Of a DNA stretch of 44,900 nucleotides, positions 4,000 through 43,421 are shown piece after piece. Position 1 is the first letter of the stretch; each line of letters opens with the position of its first letter. A program made the position numbers and the translations under genes. A model generated the notes under the pieces. That model ran no database searches, was not told where the DNA came from, and saw only the letters and a list, made by a program, of their open reading frames with translations. The stretch covers positions 1 to 44,900 of IMG/VR virus record IMGVR_UViG_3300042898_002066, one strand, 5' to 3'. Origin of the DNA: a virus.

Positions 4000-4250
4000 G
4001 GGCGTTTCTTTTGAATCTTCAATCCAGCTTTTTTACACAGACCACAGATCACGCTCGGAGCGCGGCCGAACTTCTTGGACAGTTCTTTGTAGGAAAATGT
4101 TGGGTTGTCTTTTACGAACCGCTCGATGGCCGCCTTCTCTTTCTCGGTCATCGGGCTCCAACCTTCTTTGGGTTTCTCGACTACAACGGTTTTTGTGATC
4201 GTGGGCTGTGGCCCCATCAGGCGTTCAATGGCTTCACGGGAGAGTTTCAT
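3996..4250 (-). CDS. Small helix-turn-helix protein
   Basis: An 84-residue Lys-rich protein; the ATG at 4250 overlaps the RecE-like gene's end by 17 nt. Residues ~38-72 (EKAAIERFVKDNPTFSYKEL, then SKKFGRAPSVICGLCKKAGL) have the spacing of a helix-turn-helix whose recognition helix is near RAPSVICGL. It is probably DNA-binding. No clear ribosome site is present, so coupling to the upstream gene is likely. Confidence 0.7.
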   Translation of the reverse strand: MKLSREAIERLMGPQPTITKTVVVEKPKEGWSPMTEKEKAAIERFVKDNPTFSYKELSKKFGRAPSVICGLCKKAGLKIQKKRP

Positions 4251-5028
4251 CTTTGAGAATCCAGGTGGGCGATTGAATGATTTGAATGGAGTCGCCGTTG
4301 TAACCCGGCCAGCTGTCGGTGTCCTCGCAGACCATCCACTGTCGGATCCACGACTGCCATGTGGTCGATCCTTTGTCTAGCGAATCAGTGTCCAGCTGGT
4401 AAACAGCGACCGCGTAGGGCGCCTGGTCTTCGACGCAAATCCACTGCCATGCGCGAGTCTCCCCGGTGATATCCCGATATAGGTCGCGGTAGTACGCTGC
4501 CTGCACGTCGTAGCGCAGCTGACCGATCTGCCGGCGGAACCCAGCCTTGCTAGCATCCCTCGTTTTCTTGAGATCGACGATTACCGGGGTCGTGTTGGGC
4601 AGCCAGTCGATCAAGCCCTTGCGTTCGCAGGACTCGAACTCACCGAACATCCCGACCTGGGCCTTACCCGGCTCGGCCAGTAGGCGGCCTGCAACTGGGT
4701 GCAATCGGACCGCCTCAACCATGCGTTCGACAGTCTCGATCGCGTCCTGCTTAAACACGGTGACCCGGCGGTACTCCTGGTCCTCTCGCCAGGCGCGTGC
4801 TTCCTTGGTTCTGAAGTCGTCGTAGGGAGATGTGGTCCAAAGGTACGGCGTCCCGAGGACCTTGTGATCCAGCAGGGAGCCGATAGCCATGGCCTCGGAC
4901 GGCTCGCGCTCTTCCTCGAAGCCGACCTTAGCGTGAGCCGGCGACCGGCTGAACGCCTTGAGACTGGAGATGTTGATCGCCGGGTGACTGCGGTAGGTGT
5001 TTACGTCGATAGGGTGGACTAACTTCAC
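4234..5028 (-). CDS. RecE-like PD-(D/E)XK exonuclease
   Basis: A 264-residue protein starting at GTG 5028, with GGAGGT upstream and a GTGA overlap with the recT stop. It has the features of RecE/exonuclease VIII-type nucleases: GSLLDHKVL (50-58), a catalytic core RKGLIDWL (Asp141) and VIVDLKKT (Asp152, Lys154), then a helix with QLRYDVQAAYY (170-180) typical of the family. The expected job is 5'-to-3' resection of double-strand ends to leave 3' single strands for the neighbouring RecT-type protein. It corresponds to the nuclease domain only, without the long N-terminal part of E. coli RecE. The pairing with recT strongly supports the call. Confidence 0.88.
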   Translation of the reverse strand: MKLVHPIDVNTYRSHPAINISSLKAFSRSPAHAKVGFEEEREPSEAMAIGSLLDHKVLGTPYLWTTSPYDDFRTKEARAWREDQEYRRVTVFKQDAIETVERMVEAVRLHPVAGRLLAEPGKAQVGMFGEFESCERKGLIDWLPNTTPVIVDLKKTRDASKAGFRRQIGQLRYDVQAAYYRDLYRDITGETRAWQWICVEDQAPYAVAVYQLDTDSLDKGSTTWQSWIRQWMVCEDTDSWPGYNGDSIQIIQSPTWILKDETLP

Positions 5029-6002
5029 AGCGCACCTCCCGCCTTCACCACTGCACGGCCGATACCCCGCTTGTTCCGGATGATCCAGTTGCAGATATCA
5101 GGAGGAAGGTCTGCCACCGTGGGATAGGCTTCAGGGTTTTCCCACCACTTCAGGTCTATGACCAGCTTCACCAGCTGCTCGTAGGTAATCCCAGCGGATG
5201 CTAGCGTCCCTTCGACGGTTTCAAGCTCAGGCTCCGGCGCGGGAACGGGTGCGACCGGGGCGGGTGCGGTCTCAACGATCTCCGGTGTGGGTTCAGGAGC
5301 GGGCGGCTCCACGATTGCAATAGCCTCGGCCTCCTTCTTCTTGCGCGGCTTGGGCTCAACAGGTGCAGGAGGCGTGGGTGTAACGTCCATGATGGATGAA
5401 CTCACGGTGACCGACTGGACCACCTGCTGGGCCGCAGGGGTGTCCTGGACCTCTTCCGAGGTGTGCATACCCAGTGCGATCTCGGGCGCGTAGGTGCGGC
5501 ACCAGAAGGCGCCGGCCCGGTACTGGAGCATCTGCTCCGGCATGGTCTTCCACTTGGAGCCAGACTTGCCGTACCAACCCTCGACCTTGGCCATATTGAT
5601 GTTCACGAGGGCGCCAACGAGTTCCAGGTTGGAGTCGCGCTCGACTGCGAAAGCGCGGCAGCCCCACTCATCTGTCCCCTCTTTTCCAACCCAGCGGAAA
5701 CGCATCGGACTGAACCGACCGCAGCTGTTGACGGTGGCGATCAGGAACGAGGCAGACCACGTTGGCTTGCCGTGAATGGGAACCATGGACTGCATAACAG
5801 CCATGACCGAGGCGCCAATGCGCTGGCTGAGTTCCAGAGCAATGATGCAGTTCCCGAGGTTAGCCTCGCCCCGGTAGGCGTCGGGAACGAGGGTGCTGGA
5901 CGCAAGGGCCTTGGCCATGCGTTGGACTGAAACGAACGCGTTCTCCGAAGAGAAGGCGCTGAGAGGTTGTGCTTGCTGTGTTGCGACTGTTAGGTTGCTC
6001 AT
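5025..6002 (-). CDS. recT: RecT-family single-strand annealing protein
   Basis: A 325-residue protein. Residues ~20-195 match the RecT family: a helical start (FVSVQRMAKALASSTLVPDA), GNCIIALELSQRIGASVMAV, then the diagnostic PTWSASFLIATVNSCGRFSP and the MPEQMLQYRAGAFWCRTYAP helix. It should bind single-stranded DNA and anneal homologous strands made by the adjacent RecE-like nuclease. A Pro/Glu/Ala-rich hinge (~215-265) leads to a small C-terminal domain (ITYEQLVKLVIDLKWWENPE onward) that may bind partners. No ribosome site precedes the ATG; instead the ATG sits in an inverted repeat (6000-6019). Confidence 0.9.
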   Translation of the reverse strand: MSNLTVATQQAQPLSAFSSENAFVSVQRMAKALASSTLVPDAYRGEANLGNCIIALELSQRIGASVMAVMQSMVPIHGKPTWSASFLIATVNSCGRFSPMRFRWVGKEGTDEWGCRAFAVERDSNLELVGALVNINMAKVEGWYGKSGSKWKTMPEQMLQYRAGAFWCRTYAPEIALGMHTSEEVQDTPAAQQVVQSVTVSSSIMDVTPTPPAPVEPKPRKKKEAEAIAIVEPPAPEPTPEIVETAPAPVAPVPAPEPELETVEGTLASAGITYEQLVKLVIDLKWWENPEAYPTVADLPPDICNWIIRNKRGIGRAVVKAGGAL

Positions 6003-6044: not shown

Positions 6045-9000
6045 TTACCGAACGCTTCGGTCGATTTTTTCTCGGATTCTTGTCCGAATGCGTTCTGTGT
6101 CGCGGGAGATGGTCTTGATCGCCTCGTCCGGAGTTGAGGTGATTAGTTGCGGGCCTTTTCGGAGGACATATTCCCGATACTGCTGACCCACCTCTCGTTG
6201 ATAACGGTAAAATTCCTCGGGCGTCATCTGCCGGCGAGTGCCGTTTTCTTTGACCGAGGCAGCTGCGGACGGCGTCGGAAGAAAAACTCCGCGCTCAGAC
6301 AACGTCGCCAGCGTGTTCCAGGCGGGATCATCCTTCCGGGTTTTGATCCATCGGCTGAACGGATGCTTCATCAACTCGATAGGTTCACCGAGAACATTGA
6401 CCATCGGGCCGGCTCCAATGTCGCGGCGAAGCATGGGCACTTGCTGGAGGAAATACTCCGAACCGATTTTTGCCTGGTAATACTGCGGATCGAAGTACGT
6501 ATCGACCTGCTTCAGGACATTCGGGATGAACGATCCAGCGAGGCGTCCTGCCCATCGAGACAGGTCTTTGTTGACCAAGTCATCAGCGTTGTATTTGTAC
6601 GCGTTGCTCATGCCAACGAGTTCCGTGAACGCGGAGATTGCAGGTGAGTCGGTCAGCACAAACATACCGGCCTGAGCAGCGTCCTTGAACTTTCCGAGGA
6701 TCGCGTCGCGATTCCAGTCCTTAGGGTTGTGCAGCTGGTGATCGCGTAACTCGCCGATCGCAGCCAGGCCCATCGCGAATGGCATCTGGCGATAGCTGAT
6801 GAACGTGTCTCCGATTCGGATGGAGTATGGCTGGCGCCCTTGCGCGAGCAGCTGACGCTTCTTGTCAGGATCCAGTGATCGGTACGATCCGGTAATGTCG
6901 ATGTTGCGATCCTCTTCCTTGTCATCATCACCCAGGAAGGTTGCCGCCGCCATGGCCATGATCGCGGTTCCAATGGACGCCTTCATCAACAAGAGCTTCC
7001 GCTCGTTATCGCTGATCTGGTAACCGAACGGCCGGTCGATCCGGGTCGAGTTGCTCAGGTAGTACCGGGTGAAACCCCACGGAGTGTAGTCGATCGCGCC
7101 GTTAGTGGCATTGGCCGCAAACCGCAGAAACGCCAGACCAGTGACCATCTTGACGTAGGGATACTTCTTCTCGGCTTGATTCAGCCATTGATAGAACAGC
7201 CCGACAATTCCAGTCGGGTCCTGCTTGAAAGCGGCCTGCCGAGCAAGCTCCTTGGCATCGACTAGGATCTCGGACGGGATTCGGCTCTCAAGGATTTCCC
7301 GAACGCGCCGGTTGATTTCATTGGCAGGAATACCCTCAGACTCAGCCTTGTCTTTCGCCAGCTGAACATCTTCCGCAGTCGGAATGAGGAACTTTTTGAT
7401 CTGCTCCGCATCGCCACCGCGAGTAATGATCCACGCCTTCATGGCCTCGTAGTTTGAGGTCACAGCAATGTGATCCATGGCATCCATGAATCGCGAGACG
7501 AAGCGCAGATTGCTGATAGTCTTAAGAGCCTCGTTGTCGGATTTCTTGAGTGCTTCGAGTGTGCTGGTCGGGCGCTCTGGATCGAAGTTGATGCCACGGA
7601 ACATCTCACCTTTGCCGAGGATAGCCGGCAAATCCTGGGCTGAACGGCGCAAGCCATCGAGCCACGCCGACGCAATGTACGGAGCCGATCTCGGGCTTTG
7701 CACCGAAGCCAGTCCAGCTGTGATCATGCTGTTGATAATCCCGGTGCCCTGCTCGACCGCTGTGGTTAAGCCTGACAGGACGGATCCGTACCAGTAATCC
7801 ATGACGATGTTTCGAGCGCGGATACCTCCTTCTCGCTGCATCAGCTGGTACATCTCCTGGATGATCTTGTTTCGGGACGTGCCGCCAGTTCTCTGGGCAC
7901 GTTGCGCCATGTCAGAAATCTTCTGAGCAGTCTCTCCGTTGATCTGAGCGACTCCGAACTTCGGTGCGATGGCGTTTCGGAACGCATCAGCTGCTGCTTC
8001 AGGATTGGTAAGCAAACCCAGGTTCGCCCACTTGATGATCTCGGGAATCGAGTCGTAGATTTTCTTGCGAAACTTATCTTTAACCTCGGGCAGTTTGACC
8101 TGCTTACGGAACTCTTCGCGAACGATCTTGTTTCGCTCCTTCTCAAAGGCGTTGCCGAGCAGGTTGGCGAGTTCGATCTGACCCGCACGACTCAAGGTCT
8201 TAAGGATCGGATGTTCGCTGATCACGTCGAGCAGGATGCGCTTGTAGTTCCCCTGCTTGTCTAAGCTGGAGGTCATTATGTCCTCCCACGAAACACCAAG
8301 CTCCCGGCGAGCTTGCTTGAGTTCGCGTGACACGACGTTGTCGGCAATCGACAAAGTGGACCGGATATTTGCGATCGCCCGACGTGAGGAGTCGAGCAAC
8401 CAGCGGCGGATCTGATCGGATGAAACGTCAGGGAACGGAATCTCCTTCTGGCGCTCAGTGATCAGGTTGTAATAGGTCAGCGTAGGGGTCAGGTAGTCGA
8501 TGTCATTGATCATCGCCCGACGCGCTTGACCGGGCTGTGCGAAGTCCTGAGCACCGCTCTGCGCTGCTACTTCACCGATCTTACGAAGCAGATAGACCCA
8601 CCTCTGCTGGTCGATTGGGTTTCGGAACGACCCCTGGATTCGGGCGGCAGTGCGTTCGATAAGCTCCCCAAGAATGGTCTGCTGAAGAGCCGGCGTGATA
8701 CCGAACTGAGCGGCTCGATTGCCTCCAGTAGCCGCAGTGAAAGCCTCTTCGATGTCGTCGCCAAACTGATCGACCCATTCACGGGCAGCGGATTTACGCT
8801 CTGCGTTGGTCTCGCGAACGATGCGCCCCTGAAAGAACCCAGCAGACGGGCGGCGACGTTGACCAGCAGCAGCGCGAGGCTGCTTAATGTCTTCTCGGTC
8901 AAACGGACCATAGCCCGGAGTCTCAAATGCGCCTTCAATTATCTGGCCGATTTCGACCTCGGCAGCAGCGAAGTCCGTATTTGACGGTGCATTATCGCGC

Positions 9001-12000
9001 ACATACTCGAACGCCGCCTGACGCGCTTGCACGATGTCGCGGGTCTTAATGTAGACCGCACGCGCAGCTCGCAGCGCCAGATTGATAACCGCCAGCGGGA
9101 TTGCCGCAGTAGATTCGTATGAACCCTGCGGACGGGTAGCTTCGATGGCCCGGTTCAGCAGGTTCTCGACCTTGTCGTACATCAATCGGCCGAGATCGGA
9201 ATTGAGTTGTTCGGCCAAAGACAGCAGGGCGGGCGCGTCAGACGCGTCCATCGTGCCGACAAGGAATGATCCCTTTTGGATAAGATTGTCCGGGAACATC
9301 CGCTGGATGCTCGCGCTAGACCAGACTGGGCGTAACGCACTTCCGGCCCGGATGCGGACTTCGTACTTTCCGTTGCCAACAGGCTTGATGCGTAGGAGTT
9401 CGCTAGCCTTTCCTCCGTCGCTCTGACCCTTGGCAAAAATCTCGGTGCCGCTTTTCAGGAGCGATATAGCTTCTTCTCTGCCGATCCGGATGTCCTTCAC
9501 CATGCGCTCAGGTGTGAAACTGGCTGGCATCACAATACCAGTCTTCCGCTTGCCGGTGTTGGTCGTGTAGATGGTAATCTTTGGTCGAACCTCAGATGCG
9601 CCACGCGCTCCTTGAAAACCCTTCAGCAGGTTTCCAGTCACGATGTACCGCTGATCGGTCGTCTCCGTTGTGGTCTGCCATTCTTCAGCGGCATTGGATA
9701 CCTCTTGACCAAGAGACGAAGCGACCTCTGATCCCTCAGACATTGACAGCGGCATAGAGGCGCGTGAACGCACCATGTTGCGTATCAAAAGAATCTGATG
9801 ATCGGACGGACGAGTAAAGTTCCCAGGATCGTTTGACTTAAGTTTCAGTCCAATCGGAACTGCGACGTAGCCGAATTGATTTTTAAATGCTCTCCCGATC
9901 TTTTGATAAGCATTGATAACCATTTGTCTGGTTTCTTCAAAACCATCTTTAACTGATTGTATCTGCGATGGAGACATTTCTTTAGCCTGCATCGTAGCAA
10001 TACGTTGATCCTCAAATGCTCTGCTCTGTTGAAGCCATCCTTCCGCAATGTTCTTAGTTGAAGGTTTATTCTTAGCAGCTTCTTCGGTTGCAGTGCTGTA
10101 AGTTGGCGGTGCCTTCGGTGAATTGATTGAGACGCGCTCCATGATAGACGGGCCGTCAAATGGAGTAGTTCCAGTTCCAGGAGTAAATTCCGTAGACTCA
10201 AGAATTTTAGCTCTAAAATCATCGACGTTAGCCTTCAGCGGGTTCTCACCAACCTCATCGAGCGCCCGGATTCGGTCCGTGTAGAGTTCCGAGATGTCGC
10301 GCCAAAGCTTGGCAGCGTAGTCGTCCGGAAGGATTACGAAGTAACCCGTGGCCGATCTAGCGAAGTCGCCACCTTCGTCGATTCCTTCGTCGAGCGGAGG
10401 CAGACTGAAGTCCATCTGGTCAACGATCTCAGGATTGGATTTTAGGACGTTGTAGACCACGTCATCGCCAATCGAGTTGAAGATGTCAGCAACCAGACCT
10501 TCGTTTGCGGTCAGATCGGATTCAGTATCGGCAGATGTGTTGGCGTTCAACGAAGCCATCTTGCGCCGCAGCAACACCATGAACCGATTCTCAGCGGCCA
10601 GCGAAGAGGATAGAACCACGTAGCGCGGCAAGCTGGTCTGACCAAAACGCATGATGCGTCCGAGCATCTGCATGAAGTCGTTGATGTCTGGGGCAGCTTG
10701 GCCGACGATCATCACGCGGCGCCGCTGGTCTTTGAACTTTGGATCAGTATGCGCGCTGGTTCCAGTTGATCCCGACTTGTTGACTAGGATGGCATCAAGA
10801 CGGCCGTTGTTGAAGTCGTCCAAGACTACACGTCGATCGCGTTTCTTCCTAGAAGTAGGGGTCGCCTTCCCATCAGGCGTAGTGACGACCTCCGTGTTTC
10901 GTCCGGTAATTTCGTCGATGGAATAACCGGCCTGCTGAATGCGGTTCTTAATGAAGTCGATAGGCGAGATCGGCATATCGCCAAAATCAATACCTTCAAT
11001 TTCATTGCGAATACCCTCGTATTGTTCACGGGCATCATCCGGAAGTTCGTCCGGCGTGATTTTAACCGTGGTCTTCGTGTCGGCCGCTTTGTCGCGGACG
11101 GTGACCTCAAGCAGTTTGTCCAGCTGGCGAAGCAGCAACCCCTTGTACGAAACATCGTAACCCTCTTTCTTTAGGTTTTCGATCGGGCCTTCCAGCGTGT
11201 TGTTGATCGCGATGAACGGCTTTTCATTGCCTTTCAACGTTTCAATCGCTTTGTCAGCAATCGCTTGGGACTTGAGGGACAGAATGTACTGTGTCGAAAG
11301 CTGGAACAGAAGGCTTCCGAAATTCGTGGATGAAACGCTGACCTTTTCTTCCGATGCGCGGGTCTGGTTTTCCGCGTTCTCCATCTTCTTGGCGACCTTC
11401 GAGACCTTCTTGCTGAAGCGTAGGATCTGCTGGAGAAAGTCCGTGTACACATCGGCAAGCTCGCGCTCGCGCTCTGCGTTGTCGGTAGACGTGACGAAAT
11501 CAAACGGCACGCCTCCCCAGTTCTGCTCACGGCGCACAAACTCGCCGGATTCAGCGAGCATCGAGGTCAACGCCTGTTGGAGCGCCAAACCGCCGCTGTC
11601 CATCAACTCGGTCATTTCGGTCGGACGTAATCCAGCGCGCTGCATCAACGTCTTGAGCGCGTAGAGCCCGAGGTTATCCGGTCGCTTGGCAAACGTTGCA
11701 GATGCGAAGTATGAGCCCTTCGACTTGGGAAGAATCTGATCGAACCGAATGTTTGTGTCGGAATTTGCGCCAGCTGCAACGTGGGCTTCGTCCAACACGA
11801 AGATCGCGTTGGGAGCAATGCGAGAAAGCGCCTGCCAGATCGGACCAAACGGTTTGGCAACGCGCTTGGATTGGCGCTGACGTTTTTGCTTTGAAGTCTC
11901 TTTGAATCCTGGAGGAACGTCTGACTTCAGTTGGTCGTAGGTTGTGAATAACGCATTGGTTCCAGCGGGAAGTTCGGCCGTATCATTAACTTTCGCTAGT

Positions 12001-15000
12001 TCCTCGCGGGTCTTAGCAACAGTTCTTCGGATCTTCACTGTATCACCAGTAGAGGATAGGTAATCGACTTTGTTGTCTGTGATGTAAGGTCGAATGCTCG
12101 TATCTCCGATCGCCGGAAGATCCCGGCCGGCCATGTCAGAATACAGAGTGGGCTTGGCGGTGATGAACACCGGAGTCAGCCCGTTCAAGCGTGCATACCG
12201 CAACACGGCAGCCACAGTGCGGCCCTTACCCACACCAGTCTGATCCGAGTTAATTAACGCCGAACCGCGTTCGATGTTTCGGATTGCTAATCCAGCAGCG
12301 TCAATCTGGGCGGCGGACATTATCTTAAACAACTGGTCCTTGGTCATCTGCAACCGATTAGCGACGTAGTTGTCGATCGGCATCTTGACCTCGGCCTCCA
12401 ATTCGCGGAGGGCTCGCTCAGTGGCGTCAGCGATGTTTGAGGGGCTGACGAGTCCGGTTTCAGCGTTTTTGCTCTGGCTCTTGTAGGGCTTAGTACGCGC
12501 CTCAGACATGGCCTCCGGCTCTGACTCGATTTCGGGATCGACCGTAATCTCAGGCTCGGTGGGCACCGTGGTTTGGTCGATCGCATCAATGACGCCGGTC
12601 GCCTGGGTTCGATTGAGATCATCCAATCCCTCGACGGTATTGGCGGTCTCCTGCCAAATGGATAGAAGCGACCGCTTGAGCTTATCCCAGATTTCAGGGA
12701 GATCAGCACGCACTTGCGAAGCGAACTCGGCAAACGTGCGGATGCCGGCCTTGACGTACAAGGAAGCCATCTTGACGCCGATTACCAGAATCTCTGGGTC
12801 CACGCCCATGGCGGTGCCACCTAGCTTGTCGCGCAGCTGCTTCTTTAACGCCTCCAGTTGCGTTTGCTCATCCGTAGATAGCTTCGATGTTAACCCGGGC
12901 CTTGCGGCAGGCGGCTTAACCACAGGTTCAATCCGTCCTCCTGCCACGCCTCCAGCTGCTCCTGGTTCTTCGACTCTGGGCGCTGGCTCAACCACTGGTC
13001 CAGTTGCCGCCGGTTCACTTGGAGTAGGAGTTCGTTGTTCTGGAGCACTTGGTACAACTGCTCCGGGTCCAGGAACAGGCTGCTCGACAGGAACAGGTTC
13101 TGGCCGCTTTCCTTGAGATAAGAGTTCAGGACTCGCAGGCGCTCCTGGAACGCCTCCGGGTTGTCCTGCACCTCCTTCAACTGTCGGCTCCACAGCTGGG
13201 ACATTTCCCATGCTAGTTGCTGCTGGGACGACAGGGGTTGTGACTTTCGATTTGCGAGCTTCATTGATCAGCGGTTTGAGTTGTGCCCAGTTGTTGTAAA
13301 CGCGAGGTGCTGAAACCCACGGACGGACCAAACCTCCTTGGGCGGATGGAGAGGTTGATCGTTTTCCGTCGATTACCACAATATCGACCGGCCATCCTGC
13401 CCCCATCTTGGAGTACATACTGCCGTCGATGGTGAAGAAGTCGGTAACATTAAACCGATTGAACAGGTCAAGGTACTCAGCCCGTTCGTAGGATTTCAGC
13501 CGGTTTTCTGGAGTTCCCAGCTTGTTGGACTGCGATCCAGTCTTGGATCCCAAGATCAGCACGGCCTTTCCGTTGGGGGCCATGGCTTCGAGCGTGTTCA
13601 GCGCAATAGCGAGGTCGATGCTCGAAGTATCCGCCCGCTTGATACTGCTTCGGAAGAGCGGGAACGATTCCTTATAACCTTCAAGGAATCGAGCGCCAAA
13701 CGGAGGGTTGATAATGACGCGATCCGGTTGAGCAGAATCCAACAAGTCAAAGAACTCCTTGCTGACGGCATCAAGTCCGGTGGCAGGTTTTCCAATAAAG
13801 CGTTCCAGACGCGTGCGGCGGTTGGGATCCAACTCGTTAGCAAGAATCTCCTGCCTAGTCGGATCTGACGTGACAAGCAGCATTCCATTGCCGGCGGTCG
13901 TTTCGGCAATGCGTTGACCACCCTCTATGTCAGCAAGGATGCCGGCCAGATAAGCAAGCGGAGGCGGCGTGGAGTAGGCTTGCGCGGTTTTACTGGACGC
14001 AGTTCGAGTACGCAGATCCGGCCCTTGTTCGTACCGCTGAGTCAGCTTGTCGTAGGTCTCAGTCGGATCTACTCCAGCAGACCGATCTTCACGCACAGTC
14101 TGTGCGGTAGCTTGAATGATCTGCGATTCAAGTTCCTCTTCGACTTCTTTCTTGTTCGGTTCAACCAGTATTGGGCCGGGAACAGGTGTTGGTTTGGCAG
14201 GAGGAAGCACGGACGCCGCTAGAGAGATTTCCTCCGGAGGACGGATTAGCTCTTCTGGTACGATCGGCGCTTTGGGTGTAGGCTCCGCTGGCGGCGCAAT
14301 AGCCCCTTCAACAGCGGCAGGAATCGTGGGTTCCGGCTGGATTGAAATCGGTCCAGAGGGCGGCCCGCCTGCATTGATACCACCAAGCTCTTCAGTAATG
14401 TCGGGAGTGAGCGCATCCTCTATTCCAGATACAGTGGCAGCAGAGTTCGGAAGCGGGTTTGCGGGATCATCACCAATGGCTGCACGGCTAGCAGCCTCAC
14501 GATCAATGAATCCAGGAATGCCATCAACCACCGCACCTTTTCCAAGGCGCTCCTGCTGCAAGCTACGAAGCCTCTGTCCACGCGAAATCTTGCCAGCTCC
14601 ACCGGCAACGAGTCCGACCAGTGTTCCGACGCCCGCACCAACCTCTCCGGACTCAAGGATTCCTTGGCCTAGTTTCTGGTCAGGGTTGTAGATTTTCTGA
14701 GCGGCCAGATTCTGAAGGAACTGTTCCGACGATTCCTGTGCTGCTTCTTCAAGTCCAGTTTTGAAAGCGCCACGAACAACCCTTTTTCCAATAGCGCCAG
14801 TTACCAGACGCTTTACTGCTGGAACAGCACCTAACGCGCTTTCGGTGATCGCACCAATCGGTGCTGTAGCCATGAGCACCTTACGCTGTGCTTGTGGCTT
14901 TTCAGCGCGGAGCCGACTGGCTTCCGTCATGTCTCCTTTTGCCAACGCTTCCGCAATCTTGGTATCGTAGAATTGACCTGCCTCTTGGGCGGCATCTTCA

Positions 15001-15497
15001 CCAGAACTAAGGCCGTATGCCAGCTGTCCAACGCCGGGTATCGCTGCAACCGGAAGCGATCCAACGCCGCTCGCCAGCTGGGTAAGGTAATCTTCTTCCC
15101 GCAATGGATTGACCGGAAACGCTTCCGCCGCTCCTGCTTGAAGGTTCTGACCCAGCTTAAACGTCGGATCATTTTCAGTTCTCGCTTGGAGAACTTCAGG
15201 TGAAACTTCCCTAGTGCGTTGCTGCCATGCTTCGAGCCTACGGTTGTAAGCTTCCATTCCAGCGGGGCTTTCTGCTTGCGCCGCTGTCATCATCGGAGGC
15301 GGCTCTTCTGACGCTAAACGCGCAAGGCCCATCATGCTTCCACCAACCATGCGACCGCCTTCCCGCATGAAGGCTGATCCAGCGGAAGAAAGCGCACCTT
15401 GATCTAAGGTATCGACAAATTCTTGAAGTTCATTTTCACCAACATCATCAGGAACCTCGATTAGACCGATGTCTTGAATATCAATGAGCTTAGGCAT
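6045..15497 (-). CDS. Giant polyvalent protein: adenine methyltransferase + Strawberry-notch helicase + virion C-terminal region
   Basis: A 3150-residue protein. In order: a short N-terminal segment; Ala/Gly-rich helical region with hydrophobic stretches (~100-310) of the type seen in ejected virion proteins; Pro-rich linkers; an N6-adenine methyltransferase domain (~505-735) with AETTAGNGMLL and catalytic NPPF (597-600); a second Pro/Glu linker; an SF2 helicase of the Strawberry-notch type (~1040-1720) with Walker A GVGKGRT (1088-1094), DEAH (1236-1239) and GRIMRFGQ (~1613-1620); then about 1400 residues including an LPD38-like segment (~2770-2820) and a hydrophobic helix (~2835-2855). The methyltransferase plus helicase pair resembles P1 DarB, a packaged antirestriction protein. 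Location beside internal virion genes suggests it is injected with DNA. Its role here is inferred; catalytic motifs appear intact. Confidence 0.88.
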   Translation of the reverse strand: MPKLIDIQDIGLIEVPDDVGENELQEFVDTLDQGALSSAGSAFMREGGRMVGGSMMGLARLASEEPPPMMTAAQAESPAGMEAYNRRLEAWQQRTREVSPEVLQARTENDPTFKLGQNLQAGAAEAFPVNPLREEDYLTQLASGVGSLPVAAIPGVGQLAYGLSSGEDAAQEAGQFYDTKIAEALAKGDMTEASRLRAEKPQAQRKVLMATAPIGAITESALGAVPAVKRLVTGAIGKRVVRGAFKTGLEEAAQESSEQFLQNLAAQKIYNPDQKLGQGILESGEVGAGVGTLVGLVAGGAGKISRGQRLRSLQQERLGKGAVVDGIPGFIDREAASRAAIGDDPANPLPNSAATVSGIEDALTPDITEELGGINAGGPPSGPISIQPEPTIPAAVEGAIAPPAEPTPKAPIVPEELIRPPEEISLAASVLPPAKPTPVPGPILVEPNKKEVEEELESQIIQATAQTVREDRSAGVDPTETYDKLTQRYEQGPDLRTRTASSKTAQAYSTPPPLAYLAGILADIEGGQRIAETTAGNGMLLVTSDPTRQEILANELDPNRRTRLERFIGKPATGLDAVSKEFFDLLDSAQPDRVIINPPFGARFLEGYKESFPLFRSSIKRADTSSIDLAIALNTLEAMAPNGKAVLILGSKTGSQSNKLGTPENRLKSYERAEYLDLFNRFNVTDFFTIDGSMYSKMGAGWPVDIVVIDGKRSTSPSAQGGLVRPWVSAPRVYNNWAQLKPLINEARKSKVTTPVVPAATSMGNVPAVEPTVEGGAGQPGGVPGAPASPELLSQGKRPEPVPVEQPVPGPGAVVPSAPEQRTPTPSEPAATGPVVEPAPRVEEPGAAGGVAGGRIEPVVKPPAARPGLTSKLSTDEQTQLEALKKQLRDKLGGTAMGVDPEILVIGVKMASLYVKAGIRTFAEFASQVRADLPEIWDKLKRSLLSIWQETANTVEGLDDLNRTQATGVIDAIDQTTVPTEPEITVDPEIESEPEAMSEARTKPYKSQSKNAETGLVSPSNIADATERALRELEAEVKMPIDNYVANRLQMTKDQLFKIMSAAQIDAAGLAIRNIERGSALINSDQTGVGKGRTVAAVLRYARLNGLTPVFITAKPTLYSDMAGRDLPAIGDTSIRPYITDNKVDYLSSTGDTVKIRRTVAKTREELAKVNDTAELPAGTNALFTTYDQLKSDVPPGFKETSKQKRQRQSKRVAKPFGPIWQALSRIAPNAIFVLDEAHVAAGANSDTNIRFDQILPKSKGSYFASATFAKRPDNLGLYALKTLMQRAGLRPTEMTELMDSGGLALQQALTSMLAESGEFVRREQNWGGVPFDFVTSTDNAERERELADVYTDFLQQILRFSKKVSKVAKKMENAENQTRASEEKVSVSSTNFGSLLFQLSTQYILSLKSQAIADKAIETLKGNEKPFIAINNTLEGPIENLKKEGYDVSYKGLLLRQLDKLLEVTVRDKAADTKTTVKITPDELPDDAREQYEGIRNEIEGIDFGDMPISPIDFIKNRIQQAGYSIDEITGRNTEVVTTPDGKATPTSRKKRDRRVVLDDFNNGRLDAILVNKSGSTGTSAHTDPKFKDQRRRVMIVGQAAPDINDFMQMLGRIMRFGQTSLPRYVVLSSSLAAENRFMVLLRRKMASLNANTSADTESDLTANEGLVADIFNSIGDDVVYNVLKSNPEIVDQMDFSLPPLDEGIDEGGDFARSATGYFVILPDDYAAKLWRDISELYTDRIRALDEVGENPLKANVDDFRAKILESTEFTPGTGTTPFDGPSIMERVSINSPKAPPTYSTATEEAAKNKPSTKNIAEGWLQQSRAFEDQRIATMQAKEMSPSQIQSVKDGFEETRQMVINAYQKIGRAFKNQFGYVAVPIGLKLKSNDPGNFTRPSDHQILLIRNMVRSRASMPLSMSEGSEVASSLGQEVSNAAEEWQTTTETTDQRYIVTGNLLKGFQGARGASEVRPKITIYTTNTGKRKTGIVMPASFTPERMVKDIRIGREEAISLLKSGTEIFAKGQSDGGKASELLRIKPVGNGKYEVRIRAGSALRPVWSSASIQRMFPDNLIQKGSFLVGTMDASDAPALLSLAEQLNSDLGRLMYDKVENLLNRAIEATRPQGSYESTAAIPLAVINLALRAARAVYIKTRDIVQARQAAFEYVRDNAPSNTDFAAAEVEIGQIIEGAFETPGYGPFDREDIKQPRAAAGQRRRPSAGFFQGRIVRETNAERKSAAREWVDQFGDDIEEAFTAATGGNRAAQFGITPALQQTILGELIERTAARIQGSFRNPIDQQRWVYLLRKIGEVAAQSGAQDFAQPGQARRAMINDIDYLTPTLTYYNLITERQKEIPFPDVSSDQIRRWLLDSSRRAIANIRSTLSIADNVVSRELKQARRELGVSWEDIMTSSLDKQGNYKRILLDVISEHPILKTLSRAGQIELANLLGNAFEKERNKIVREEFRKQVKLPEVKDKFRKKIYDSIPEIIKWANLGLLTNPEAAADAFRNAIAPKFGVAQINGETAQKISDMAQRAQRTGGTSRNKIIQEMYQLMQREGGIRARNIVMDYWYGSVLSGLTTAVEQGTGIINSMITAGLASVQSPRSAPYIASAWLDGLRRSAQDLPAILGKGEMFRGINFDPERPTSTLEALKKSDNEALKTISNLRFVSRFMDAMDHIAVTSNYEAMKAWIITRGGDAEQIKKFLIPTAEDVQLAKDKAESEGIPANEINRRVREILESRIPSEILVDAKELARQAAFKQDPTGIVGLFYQWLNQAEKKYPYVKMVTGLAFLRFAANATNGAIDYTPWGFTRYYLSNSTRIDRPFGYQISDNERKLLLMKASIGTAIMAMAAATFLGDDDKEEDRNIDITGSYRSLDPDKKRQLLAQGRQPYSIRIGDTFISYRQMPFAMGLAAIGELRDHQLHNPKDWNRDAILGKFKDAAQAGMFVLTDSPAISAFTELVGMSNAYKYNADDLVNKDLSRWAGRLAGSFIPNVLKQVDTYFDPQYYQAKIGSEYFLQQVPMLRRDIGAGPMVNVLGEPIELMKHPFSRWIKTRKDDPAWNTLATLSERGVFLPTPSAAASVKENGTRRQMTPEEFYRYQREVGQQYREYVLRKGPQLITSTPDEAIKTISRDTERIRTRIREKIDRSVR

Positions 15498-40351: not shown

Positions 40352-42571
40352 ATGACCCTCACAGAACTCTCGGACGCCCTCTCCGTCCGAGTCGCAGAAC
40401 TCTGCTCTCAACTCCTACCCGCCGGCCGTCAGATCGGCCCCCAGTGGGTCGTCGGCAACGTCTTCGGCGACGCAGGCGACTCTCTGTATGTCGAACTCAC
40501 CGGCCCTAAGCAGGGCCTCTGGTACGACCACGCCGCTGGTCAGGGCGGTGATCTCCTCGAACTCATCGGCCAGCACCACGTCTATCCGAAATCCCGGGCC
40601 GCCCAGTGGGCCCGCGACTTCCTCGGCATCCGTGACGATTACCAACCCGAGCCCCGCCGCTTCGATCCCCTGAAACACGGCCACCGCAACGACGCCTCGC
40701 AGCCATACCGATACGGCTCCGCTGCCTGGCCATATCCCGACGCCGACGGTGCTATCTACGCCTACGTCGTGCGCTTCGACCTCCCCGACGGCTCTAAGGA
40801 CGTCCGGCCCCTCCGTTTCCTACCCCCTGAAAACCAACCTCCCGACCCCCTAAACCCACGCCACTGGCGCTGGAAGGGCTGGACCGCACCCGAAGACGTC
40901 CCCCTATTCAACCTCCACCTCCTCTCGCGGCGCCCAACCGACCCGGTTCTCATCGTCGAGGGTGAGAAAACCGCCATCGCGGCCTCGAAACTCTTCCCGT
41001 CCCACGTCGTTATCACCTGGCAGGGCGGATCCAAGCGTATCCAGCGGGCCGCTATCGACCCTCTCCTGACCCGCGATACCCCCGTAATCCTCTGGCCCGA
41101 CGCCGATAAACCCGGTCGCGACGCCATGATCTACCTTAAGGCCCGCCTCCCCGCCTCCCGCCTCGTCCACCTCCCCGCTACGCTCCCCGAGGGCTGGGAT
41201 CTCGCCGACCCGATCCCTCCTGACGTTTCCATCCAGGGCCTCCTCGACGCCGCTGGCGATCCACCGCGACCCGTTCAGGCTGAACCCGTACCGGCTGCGG
41301 CCAACCCGCTCGACGATCTCCACTACGATCCGAACTCCGGCCAGTGGTGGACCCGCAACGCGTGGGGCGATTACGCCCAGATCAACGGCGACCGCGCTCG
41401 CACGTTCCTCCTCGAATCCGGTGTGTCCCACGTTAAGGACGAAACCGGCACCTCCGAGGTCGATCGCCAGCTCCTGCGCCGCACCCGCGATACCCTCATC
41501 GAATACGCCGGCCCACTCGCCGGCCACCGCGCTGGCCTCTACGGCACGATCCTCGTTACCCGCTCTGTCGTCCCACTCCTGGGCGCCCCCGGCGACTGCG
41601 CCCGCATCCTGACCTACATCCATAACCTCCTGGACCAGAACGACGACCAATACTGGCGTATCATCTACTGGCTCGCGCTCCGCCGGCAGGCTGTCCTGAC
41701 AGGCACCTGGCGATCCAGTCAGGCCCTCGCCCTCGTAGGACCCGCCGCGTGCGGTAAGTCCTTCCTCCAGTCAGCCGTCATCACGCCCCTCCTCGGCGGC
41801 CGCATCGCCAAACCCTACCGCTATATGTCCGGCGCGACCGATTTCAACGGCGACCTCTTCGCCTCCGAGCACCTGGCAATCGAAGACGAGGCTCCCGGCC
41901 GCGACATCCACTCCCGCCGCGCTCTGGGTTCCAACATCAAATCCATGCTCTTCGCCCAGAATCAGTCCTGCCACCCCAAGAACCGCCAAGCCATAACCCT
42001 CCGCCCCATCTGGGCCATGTCCATCTCCCTGAACGACGAGCCCGAAAACCTCCAAGTCCTCCCCCCGCTCGACCCGTCTCTACTCGACAAGCTCATCATC
42101 CTCCGCTGCGTCCGCCATACCCTCCCCTGGCCCGGCGACGAAATCACCGTCCTTAAGGACATCCTCCAAACCGAACTCCAACCCTTCGCCCACTACCTCG
42201 ACGGCCTCGTCGTGCCTGAGCACCTCGTCGAACCCCGCTGCGGCCTGAAAGCCTACCAGCACCCGGCCATCCTTGAAGAACTCATGCAGCTCTCCCCCGA
42301 GCATCAACTCGTCGGTCTCATCGACACCGTGATCTTCGAGAAGGAGTTCCTCATCTGGCGAGGTACAGCTGCCGATCTGGAAACCGCCCTGCGCGATTCT
42401 AAGTACGCCAGGGAGGCTGACCGGCTCTTCCGGTTCAACACCGCGTGCGGCGTCTACCTCGCTCGACTGCACGAGCAGGATCCTGAGCGCATCTCGAAGA
42501 CGAAATCCAACGGGAAGGTCCGCTGGGCAATTTCTCCTCCAGCTGGGTCAGATGCTACGGCGTGGGTGTAA
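40352..42571 (+). CDS. Primase-helicase
   Basis: A 739-residue protein. The N-terminal part includes GLWYDHAAGQGGDLLELI (56-73), a CHC2-less primase-type motif, then a Toprim-like domain with LIVEGEKTAIAA (200-211) and ILWPDADKPG (246-255) carrying the expected Glu and Asp pair. The C-terminal part is a D5-like ATPase with Walker A VGPAACGKS near 462-470, an acidic LAIEDEAPG strand, and SISLNDEPENL as a likely sensor. It should start DNA synthesis and unwind DNA ahead of the fork. The coding strand is unusually C-rich at third positions compared with its neighbours. Confidence 0.88.
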   Translation: MTLTELSDALSVRVAELCSQLLPAGRQIGPQWVVGNVFGDAGDSLYVELTGPKQGLWYDHAAGQGGDLLELIGQHHVYPKSRAAQWARDFLGIRDDYQPEPRRFDPLKHGHRNDASQPYRYGSAAWPYPDADGAIYAYVVRFDLPDGSKDVRPLRFLPPENQPPDPLNPRHWRWKGWTAPEDVPLFNLHLLSRRPTDPVLIVEGEKTAIAASKLFPSHVVITWQGGSKRIQRAAIDPLLTRDTPVILWPDADKPGRDAMIYLKARLPASRLVHLPATLPEGWDLADPIPPDVSIQGLLDAAGDPPRPVQAEPVPAAANPLDDLHYDPNSGQWWTRNAWGDYAQINGDRARTFLLESGVSHVKDETGTSEVDRQLLRRTRDTLIEYAGPLAGHRAGLYGTILVTRSVVPLLGAPGDCARILTYIHNLLDQNDDQYWRIIYWLALRRQAVLTGTWRSSQALALVGPAACGKSFLQSAVITPLLGGRIAKPYRYMSGATDFNGDLFASEHLAIEDEAPGRDIHSRRALGSNIKSMLFAQNQSCHPKNRQAITLRPIWAMSISLNDEPENLQVLPPLDPSLLDKLIILRCVRHTLPWPGDEITVLKDILQTELQPFAHYLDGLVVPEHLVEPRCGLKAYQHPAILEELMQLSPEHQLVGLIDTVIFEKEFLIWRGTAADLETALRDSKYAREADRLFRFNTACGVYLARLHEQDPERISKTKSNGKVRWAISPPAGSDATAWV

Positions 42572-42586
42572 AAACTGAAGAATAGG

Positions 42587-42878
42587 GTGAGGGTGTGTTA
42601 GGGGTGCAGTGAGGGTTTGCTGGACCCTACTACTCCGTTTGACCCCTGTAAACAGGGCTCCGAATGAGTTCGACATGAAAATGGTAGGGGGGTGTGAGGG
42701 TATGCTCCAAATTCCTGGCGGCGGCGGGCGGCGGCTTCTGGAGGCTGGCGGACGGTCTGCGGCGCCACTGGAGAATTGTTCAACCATCAATATCAGTTAT
42801 ACCCCTCTACCCTCCCCTAGAAAGAACAGAATATTAAGAAAGGCCAATGAACAGGGGTCGAAAACGCAGGGTGAGGGT
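42587..42878 (+). repeat. Four direct GTGAGGGT iteron-like repeats
   Basis: Copies at 42587-42594, 42609-42616, 42694-42701 and 42871-42878, all in one orientation. The second and third share the longer GTGAGGGTwTGCT. Spacing is irregular (22, 85, 177 bp). Confidence 0.7.
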
Positions 42879-42887
42879 CGGGCTGTA

Positions 42888-42917
42888 CCCCTACTAGACC
42901 CCCCTACCCCCCTCCCC
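42888..42917 (-). other. Predicted G-quadruplex motif 1
   Basis: On the minus strand four G runs (4, 6, 6 and 4 G) are separated by loops of 1, 2 and 7 nt. This fits the canonical quadruplex rule. Confidence 0.6.
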
Positions 42918-42920
42918 TGG

Positions 42921-42932
42921 TAAAGCGGTTTA
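42921..42932. repeat. TAAAGCGGTTTA copy 1
   Basis: A 12-bp element repeated exactly at 43519-43530. The outer TAAA/TTTA arms are inverted around GCGG. It may be a regulatory or origin-linked site. Confidence 0.45.
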
Positions 42933-43001
42933 TGTGGGTTCGGAAAATGGCCTAGGTATTGGAGAGGGGGTCCCGTGATGGCCGGCCCGTAAACGCGGCC
43001 A

Positions 43002-43018
43002 CCCACCCCACCCACCCC
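43002..43018 (-). other. Predicted G-quadruplex motif 2, single-base loops
   Basis: The minus strand reads GGGGTGGGTGGGGTGGG: four G runs with single-T loops. Sequences of this GGGT type are known to form very stable parallel quadruplexes. Confidence 0.7.
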
Positions 43019-43088
43019 GTGGGGACGGTCCAGCCTTTAAGGTATCCTTTATTGATGCCGCAGGTCAGGCACGCCCGTCGAGTTATCG

Positions 43089-43421
43089 TTACGTCAGGTC
43101 AGGAGGAGTGGGGGACACGTCGAGCATCAGTGTGGACGGCTTTCCTTTTCCAGCGGCGGCAGGGCGACGGGGGATTGCGAGTAGATCGAGGAGTTGGTCC
43201 TGCACTGAGACCATAGCCTTCGCGGCGGAGATCCGATCTGGTGCAGGTGCGTTGGTGTCTTGGGCGATGTCACTGAGGTCACCAGCAACGCGACGTAGGC
43301 GAAGCACCATCTGAGCAGGTAGAGTAGCCCTCGCTACAGACAGTATCGTTCCCGTCCTCGCCTCCCTCATTGCCAGCGACTTCGGCGTGACTTCGGGAGT
43401 GGCTTTTTCGAGAGACGGCAT
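43089..43421 (-). CDS. Possible small terminase subunit
   Basis: A 110-residue protein. ATG 43421 starts MPSLEKATPEVTPKSLAMRE. The second half (RRVAGDLSDIAQDTNAPAPD, then RISAAKAMVSVQDQLLDLLA) resembles the oligomerisation core of small terminases (L..IA.D...P...R..AAK.LLD), with a Pro/Lys/Gly-rich tail (IPRRPAAAGKGKPS). If so, it recognises viral DNA for TerL. The N-terminus does not show a clear HTH. It is the lone minus-strand gene between plus-strand groups, and its start lies in a 10-bp tandem repeat. This is a weak, pattern-based call. Confidence 0.45.
   Translation of the reverse strand: MPSLEKATPEVTPKSLAMREARTGTILSVARATLPAQMVLRLRRVAGDLSDIAQDTNAPAPDRISAAKAMVSVQDQLLDLLAIPRRPAAAGKGKPSTLMLDVSPTPPDLT

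What the first reader, a model, noticed from the sequence alone, without database searches (positions are those of the whole stretch)
43002..43018. Very strong minus-strand G-quadruplex with single-T loops
GGGGTGGGTGGGGTGGG matches the most stable quadruplex class. It lies downstream of the possible small terminase stop and in the putative origin region. It may stall polymerase, mark an origin, serve in packaging or regulate transcript ends.
Basis: partly seen in the sequence, partly recalled or inferred. Interest (0 to 1): 0.6.

Follow-up and report, generated by a model that had tools for sequence, protein, structure and literature searches.

The report
G4 in phage origin-like spacer
A very strong predicted four-stranded DNA motif sits in a rapidly changing but fixed-length gap inside a conserved, non-coding, origin-like control region of a family of uncultured phages that probably infect Verrucomicrobia; the motif is real, its exact sequence is not conserved, and its role is unproven.

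Summary
The motif GGGGTGGGTGGGGTGGG is exactly at 43002-43018 on the minus strand. It is the only single-base-loop quadruplex motif in this 44.9-kb phage contig and very unlikely by chance.

The real feature is larger. The motif fills part of a 43-44-nt spacer between two conserved non-coding blocks (42920-42974, 43019-43053), between a primase-helicase gene and a convergent small gene. All 23 relatives examined have the element. The spacer keeps its length while its sequence, and sometimes the G-rich strand, changes; canonical G4 potential recurs (14 of 20 distinct spacers, 2.3 expected).

Repeats before the element, its place after the primase-helicase gene, and a GC-skew minimum near it in six circular relatives fit a replication origin or origin-proximal site. 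The spacer's left edge is also a mosaic junction: the 5' block tracks upstream sequence, the G4 spacer tracks downstream sequence.

Small terminase, structured RNA, integration site and terminator are not. A conserved minus-strand G4 is not supported: relatives lose or strand-flip it. Origin activity, packaging and G4 folding need experiments.

The parts
40352..42571 (+). primase-helicase gene (739 aa; DUF6371, weak Toprim and DUF5906 matches), convergent towards the element
42572..42919 (.). non-coding region with repeats in both orientations (AGGGTGAGGGT and TAGGGG types), iteron-like
   Evidence: repeated 8-mers above shuffles in 16 of 19 members
42888..42917 (-). second, looser G4 motif GGGGAGGGGGGTAGGGGGGTCTAGTAGGGG
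42920..42974 (.). conserved 5' block of the element
   Evidence: mean pairwise identity 0.82 over about this block
42970..42975 (.). mosaic junction: left of it sequence tracks the upstream module, right of it the downstream module
42975..43018 (.). fixed-length (43-44 nt) hypervariable spacer
43002..43018 (-). the G4 motif GGGGTGGGTGGGGTGGG
43019..43053 (.). conserved 3' block GTGGGGACGGTCC...AAGGTATCC of the element
43089..43421 (-). small convergent gene (110 aa, predicted all-helical, unknown function), conserved in the family
   Evidence: no significant Pfam, PHROG or PDB match

Best explanation
The G4 lies in a cis-acting DNA control element, most likely the replication origin or an origin-proximal site used by the adjacent primase-helicase. 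Proposed mechanism: the protein binds repeats downstream of its own gene and assembles there; the two conserved blocks, held about four helical turns apart by the 43-44-bp spacer, are contacted together; the strongly G/C-asymmetric spacer, once opened, can fold on its G-rich strand (here a G4), which helps keep the duplex open or positions priming. Shown here: the motif, the conserved blocks, the fixed spacer length, the repeats, the gene context, the skew minimum and the mosaic junction. Inferred: origin activity, protein binding, and G4 formation in the cell.
For: Conserved non-coding element in all 23 members examined, present even when extra genes separate it from the primase. Spacer length 43-44 nt in all while its sequence varies. 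Repeats enriched in 16 of 19 members. Cumulative GC-skew minimum between -461 and +1788 nt of the element in six circular genomes of 46-50 kb. Primase with Toprim/DUF5906 matches next to a helicase and a resolvase-like gene. Five of 20 distant homologues have significant inverted repeats right after the primase stop. Published precedent: the region needed for pRN1 replication is downstream of its primase/SF3-helicase gene, with a non-conserved interior flanked by conserved sequence (PMC4234260). G4 potential in 14 of 20 distinct spacers versus 2.3 expected; element among the five strongest G4Hunter places in 12 of 13 genomes.
Against: The exact G4 and even the G-rich strand are not conserved. 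The skew signal is dominated by the C-rich coding strand of the primase itself. No conserved stem-loop: folding z-scores near zero and almost no covariation. Only a quarter of distant homologues show the downstream inverted repeat. Members are related, so counts are not independent. No binding or replication data exist.
Confidence: 0.45

Rival explanations
1. The element is mainly a recombination junction. The conserved 5' block is a short shared sequence at which related phages exchange the genes to its right, by the phage's own RecT-like and exonuclease VIII-like enzymes, perhaps stimulated by G4-induced stalling or breaks as proposed for the very similar pilE G4 of Neisseria.
For: Pairs 89-99% identical upstream fall to 24-50% identity downstream; alignments end at +99 to +103; 5' block tracks the upstream module and spacer, 3' block and tail track the downstream module, modules themselves uncorrelated. 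RecT-like and exonuclease VIII-like genes present. pilE G4 GGGTGGGTTGGGTGGG is required to start pilin recombination (PMC10094033).
Against: Does not explain the two conserved blocks, the fixed spacer or the repeats by itself; other mosaic boundaries exist without this element. Compatible with the origin reading, so not exclusive.
Confidence: 0.2
2. The element is a packaging site (cos or pac): conserved blocks are terminase contacts and the spacer lies between them.
For: Conserved non-coding blocks with fixed spacing, and module exchange at the site, would also be expected of a cos site (inference).
Against: The neighbouring ORF has no support as a small terminase; large terminase gene is about 18 kb away; contig break points differ between relatives and six assemblies close as circles through the site, which does not exclude cos.
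Confidence: 0.12
3. The conserved element matters but the G4 is incidental: a neutral by-product of a rapidly evolving G/C-rich spacer whose only constraint is length.
For: Motif lost or strand-flipped in close relatives; spacer sequence tracks the downstream module like ordinary flanking DNA.
Against: Canonical G4 in 14 of 20 distinct spacers versus 2.3 expected from the same base composition, though relatedness weakens this.
Confidence: 0.35
4. The element is a transcribed structured RNA or a bidirectional terminator between the convergent operons.
For: Convergent gene layout; a G-run/C-run hairpin can be drawn in many members.
Against: No Rfam match; no terminator-like site at the element; mean folding z about +0.6 on both strands; 1 of 18 consensus pairs covaries.
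Confidence: 0.07

Closest known systems
pRN1-family plasmid origin region (also proposed for phage BIP-1), PMC4234260
   Same: Directly downstream of a primase/SF3-helicase-type gene; conserved flanks around a non-conserved interior.
   Different: pRN1 interior is a conserved 100-nt stem-loop needed for replication and its primase is archaeal-eukaryal type; here no conserved stem-loop was found, repeats are present, and the primase is Toprim type.
Phage P4 origin with alpha primase-helicase (as described in PMC4234260)
   Same: Toprim-type primase joined to a helicase domain, and repeats near the gene.
   Different: Binding not shown; repeat sequence differs; the fixed-spacer element and G4 are not part of that description.
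pilE G-quadruplex of Neisseria gonorrhoeae (PMC10094033)
   Same: Nearly the same G4 sequence class with T loops, and a location at a recombination junction.
   Different: Here exchange is between phage genomes at a module edge, not gene conversion from silent copies, and the motif is not conserved.
(G3T)n quadruplex repeats (PMC7023247)
   Same: Single-T-loop G-run arrangement reported as very stable.
   Different: Natural phage sequence with mixed G3/G4 runs; stability not measured here.

Membership tests
Single-base-loop G-quadruplex motif | four runs of at least three G separated by one base | tested here: met
Single-base-loop G-quadruplex motif | folds in vitro (CD, melting) | not testable with these tools
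   only an energy model was run
Conserved functional G4 | G runs kept in relatives with conserved flanks | tested here: not met
   lost or strand-flipped in 10 or so of 23 members; potential recurs on either strand
P4-alpha-type iteron origin | primase-helicase with Toprim and SF3-type domain next to the site | tested here: inconclusive
   Toprim E 2e-4 and DUF5906 E 2e-4, both below curated cut-offs; P-loop motif GPAACGKS seen in the sequence; fold model too poor
P4-alpha-type iteron origin | repeated sites at the origin | tested here: met
   repeats enriched in 16 of 19 members
P4-alpha-type iteron origin | protein binds the repeats and replication starts there | not testable with these tools
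   needs binding and replication assays
pRN1-type origin | location just downstream of the primase-helicase gene, variable interior in conserved flanks | tested here: met
pRN1-type origin | conserved stem-loop in the interior | tested here: not met
Integration site (attP) | integrase in the same genome | tested here: not met
   no PF00589 or PF00239 match in 8 genomes, controls positive
Packaging site next to a small terminase gene | neighbouring gene is a small terminase | tested here: inconclusive
   one of 16 members matches a TerS PHROG at E 0.11 only; no fold match

The most novel reading that the evidence does not exclude
A new kind of phage replication or recombination element whose function depends on strand-asymmetric G tracts (G4 potential) inside a fixed-length spacer, whatever the sequence or strand, so that the spacer diversifies and is exchanged with the downstream genes while G4 potential is kept.
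Probability: 0.15. Interest if true: 0.75.

Novelty: new variant of a known kind. Interest (0 to 1): 0.42.

Why it matters
It turns an isolated G4 sighting into a testable locus: about 480 bp of non-coding DNA in an uncultured phage family that looks like an origin downstream of a primase-helicase gene. It offers about 20 natural spacer variants that keep length and G-richness but change sequence and strand. If G4 potential is under selection there, this is a natural experiment on whether quadruplexes act in phage replication or recombination.

Tried and rejected
Structured RNA: Rfam, alifold, shuffle z-scores and spacer-tail complementarity gave no support. Terminator: none at the element. 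Attachment site: no integrase or resolvase. Small terminase for the neighbouring gene: no significant match. Named phages: no nucleotide match in the phage collection. A 3'-block pattern scan gave one new contig, L092, a chance match in an unrelated coding sequence. The 5'-block scan found only this phage family. The primase model was too poor (mean pLDDT 38.6), so no fold search was made with it. The first version of the arm-pairing script failed on an indexing slip and was redone.

Full report
Observation. The + strand reads CCCACCCCACCCACCCC at 43002-43018, i.e. GGGGTGGGTGGGGTGGG on the minus strand. It is the only copy and the only single-base-loop G4 motif in this 44.9-kb IMG/VR virus record. 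Dinucleotide shuffles gave none in 60 whole-window trials and 0.13% in 3000 trials of the intergenic region. Allowing G-quadruplexes lowers the predicted folding energy of the minus strand from -23.0 to -37.0 kcal/mol. (G3T)n repeats are described as forming a very stable quadruplex (PMC7023247).

Context. The site lies in a non-coding gap between a + strand primase-helicase gene (40352-42571; DUF6371, with weak Toprim and DUF5906 matches) and a convergent minus-strand gene of 110 aa (43089-43421) that is 44-77% identical to its homologues in the family. That gene has no significant family or fold match, so calling it a small terminase is not supported. A DNA helicase and an endonuclease/resolvase-like gene lie upstream; SSB, RecT-like and exonuclease VIII-like genes lie elsewhere.

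Relatives. Twenty-nine IMG/VR loci carry a close primase (82-98% identity). An Akkermansiaceae MAG contig has a 97% copy followed by the same G4. More distant homologues occur in 42 of 289 genomes of that MAG's order. The host is therefore probably a verrucomicrobium (inference). Six relatives are assemblies of 46-50 kb with 123- or 127-base identical ends, as expected of circles.

The element. In the relatives whose sequence reaches past the primase there is a conserved 5' block of about 55 nt, a spacer, and a conserved 3' block of about 35 nt, even where extra genes intervene. A scan of IMG/VR with the 5' block returned 24 stretches, from this phage family. The spacer is 43-44 nt in all 23 members examined, although its sequence falls into several types. 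The G4 is part of this spacer. Its four runs are exact in L003, L004 and L055, and a four-run minus-strand motif is present in L006, L009, L025, L027 and L036. A run is broken in L015, the canonical motif is missing in L008, L013, L022, L023 and L026, and the G runs are on the + strand in L007, L010, L012 and L021. Even so, 14 of 20 distinct spacers hold a canonical G4 on one strand, against 2.3 expected from shuffled spacers, and the element is among the five strongest G4Hunter places in 12 of 13 genomes. Members are related, so this is suggestive of selection, not proof.

Why an origin-like locus. The 365 nt before the element are rich in short repeats in both orientations, above shuffles in 16 of 19 members. 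The cumulative GC-skew minimum lies between -461 and +1788 nt of the element in all six circular genomes, though the C-rich primase coding strand drives much of it. Five of 20 distant homologues have significant inverted repeats just after the primase stop. In plasmid pRN1 the sequence needed for replication is just downstream of the primase/SF3-helicase gene, and a conserved region there is interrupted by a non-conserved interior (PMC4234260). The same paper describes P4 alpha protein binding repeats at its origin. The present locus resembles both, but the pRN1 stem-loop feature was tested here and not met.

Mosaic junction. Phages 89-99% identical upstream drop to 24-50% identity after the element. 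Three long alignments stop at +99 to +103 (WIN/G003, WIN/G002, G009/G019); a fourth, G018/G005, also stops at +99 but contig G005 ends 24 bases later. Distance matrices over 20 members show the 5' block tracking upstream sequence (r 0.36, p 0.002), and both spacer halves, 3' block and tail tracking downstream sequence (r 0.40-0.46, p 0.002), while upstream and downstream are uncorrelated (r 0.03). The main exchange point is therefore near the left edge of the G4-bearing spacer, about 42970-42975. Within the window's own close group the picture is finer: the G4 half of the spacer and the 3' block are identical to L004 while the other half and the tail are not. The pilE G4 of Neisseria, a very similar sequence, is required to initiate recombination (PMC10094033), so a recombination role stays open. 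Ordinary homologous exchange at a short conserved sequence explains it as well, and other mosaic boundaries exist in these genomes.

Verdict. The best reading is a conserved origin-proximal control element with a fixed-length, rapidly evolving, G4-prone spacer (0.45). The specific minus-strand G4 is not conserved across the family, and no function of it is shown. The confidences of the rivals do not sum to one because the recombination and incidental-G4 readings are compatible with the origin reading.

Noticed in passing
window 6045-15497 (-): A 3150-aa ORF with Strawberry-notch helicase-type domains (Helicase_C_4, AAA_34).
   Followed up: no
window 4234-6002 (-): Adjacent exonuclease VIII-like and RecT-like genes, a phage recombination pair.
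   Followed up: partly
L005 7598-7640 versus L025 1981-2023: Two otherwise identical contigs differ only in the spacer: L005 has a run of 17 C where L025 has CCCCCACCCACCCCACCCC, possibly a sequencing artefact at a G4-prone tract.
   Followed up: no
   Followed up: no
L102, L105, L107, L099, L096 just after the primase stop: Distant verrucomicrobial primase homologues carry inverted repeats made of doubled short direct repeats, e.g. TGCGACACCATCGACACCCTTTTT in L105; candidate origins of other elements.
   Followed up: partly
window 40352-42571: The primase gene has a strongly C-rich coding strand (GC skew about -0.27), shared by its relatives.
   Followed up: no
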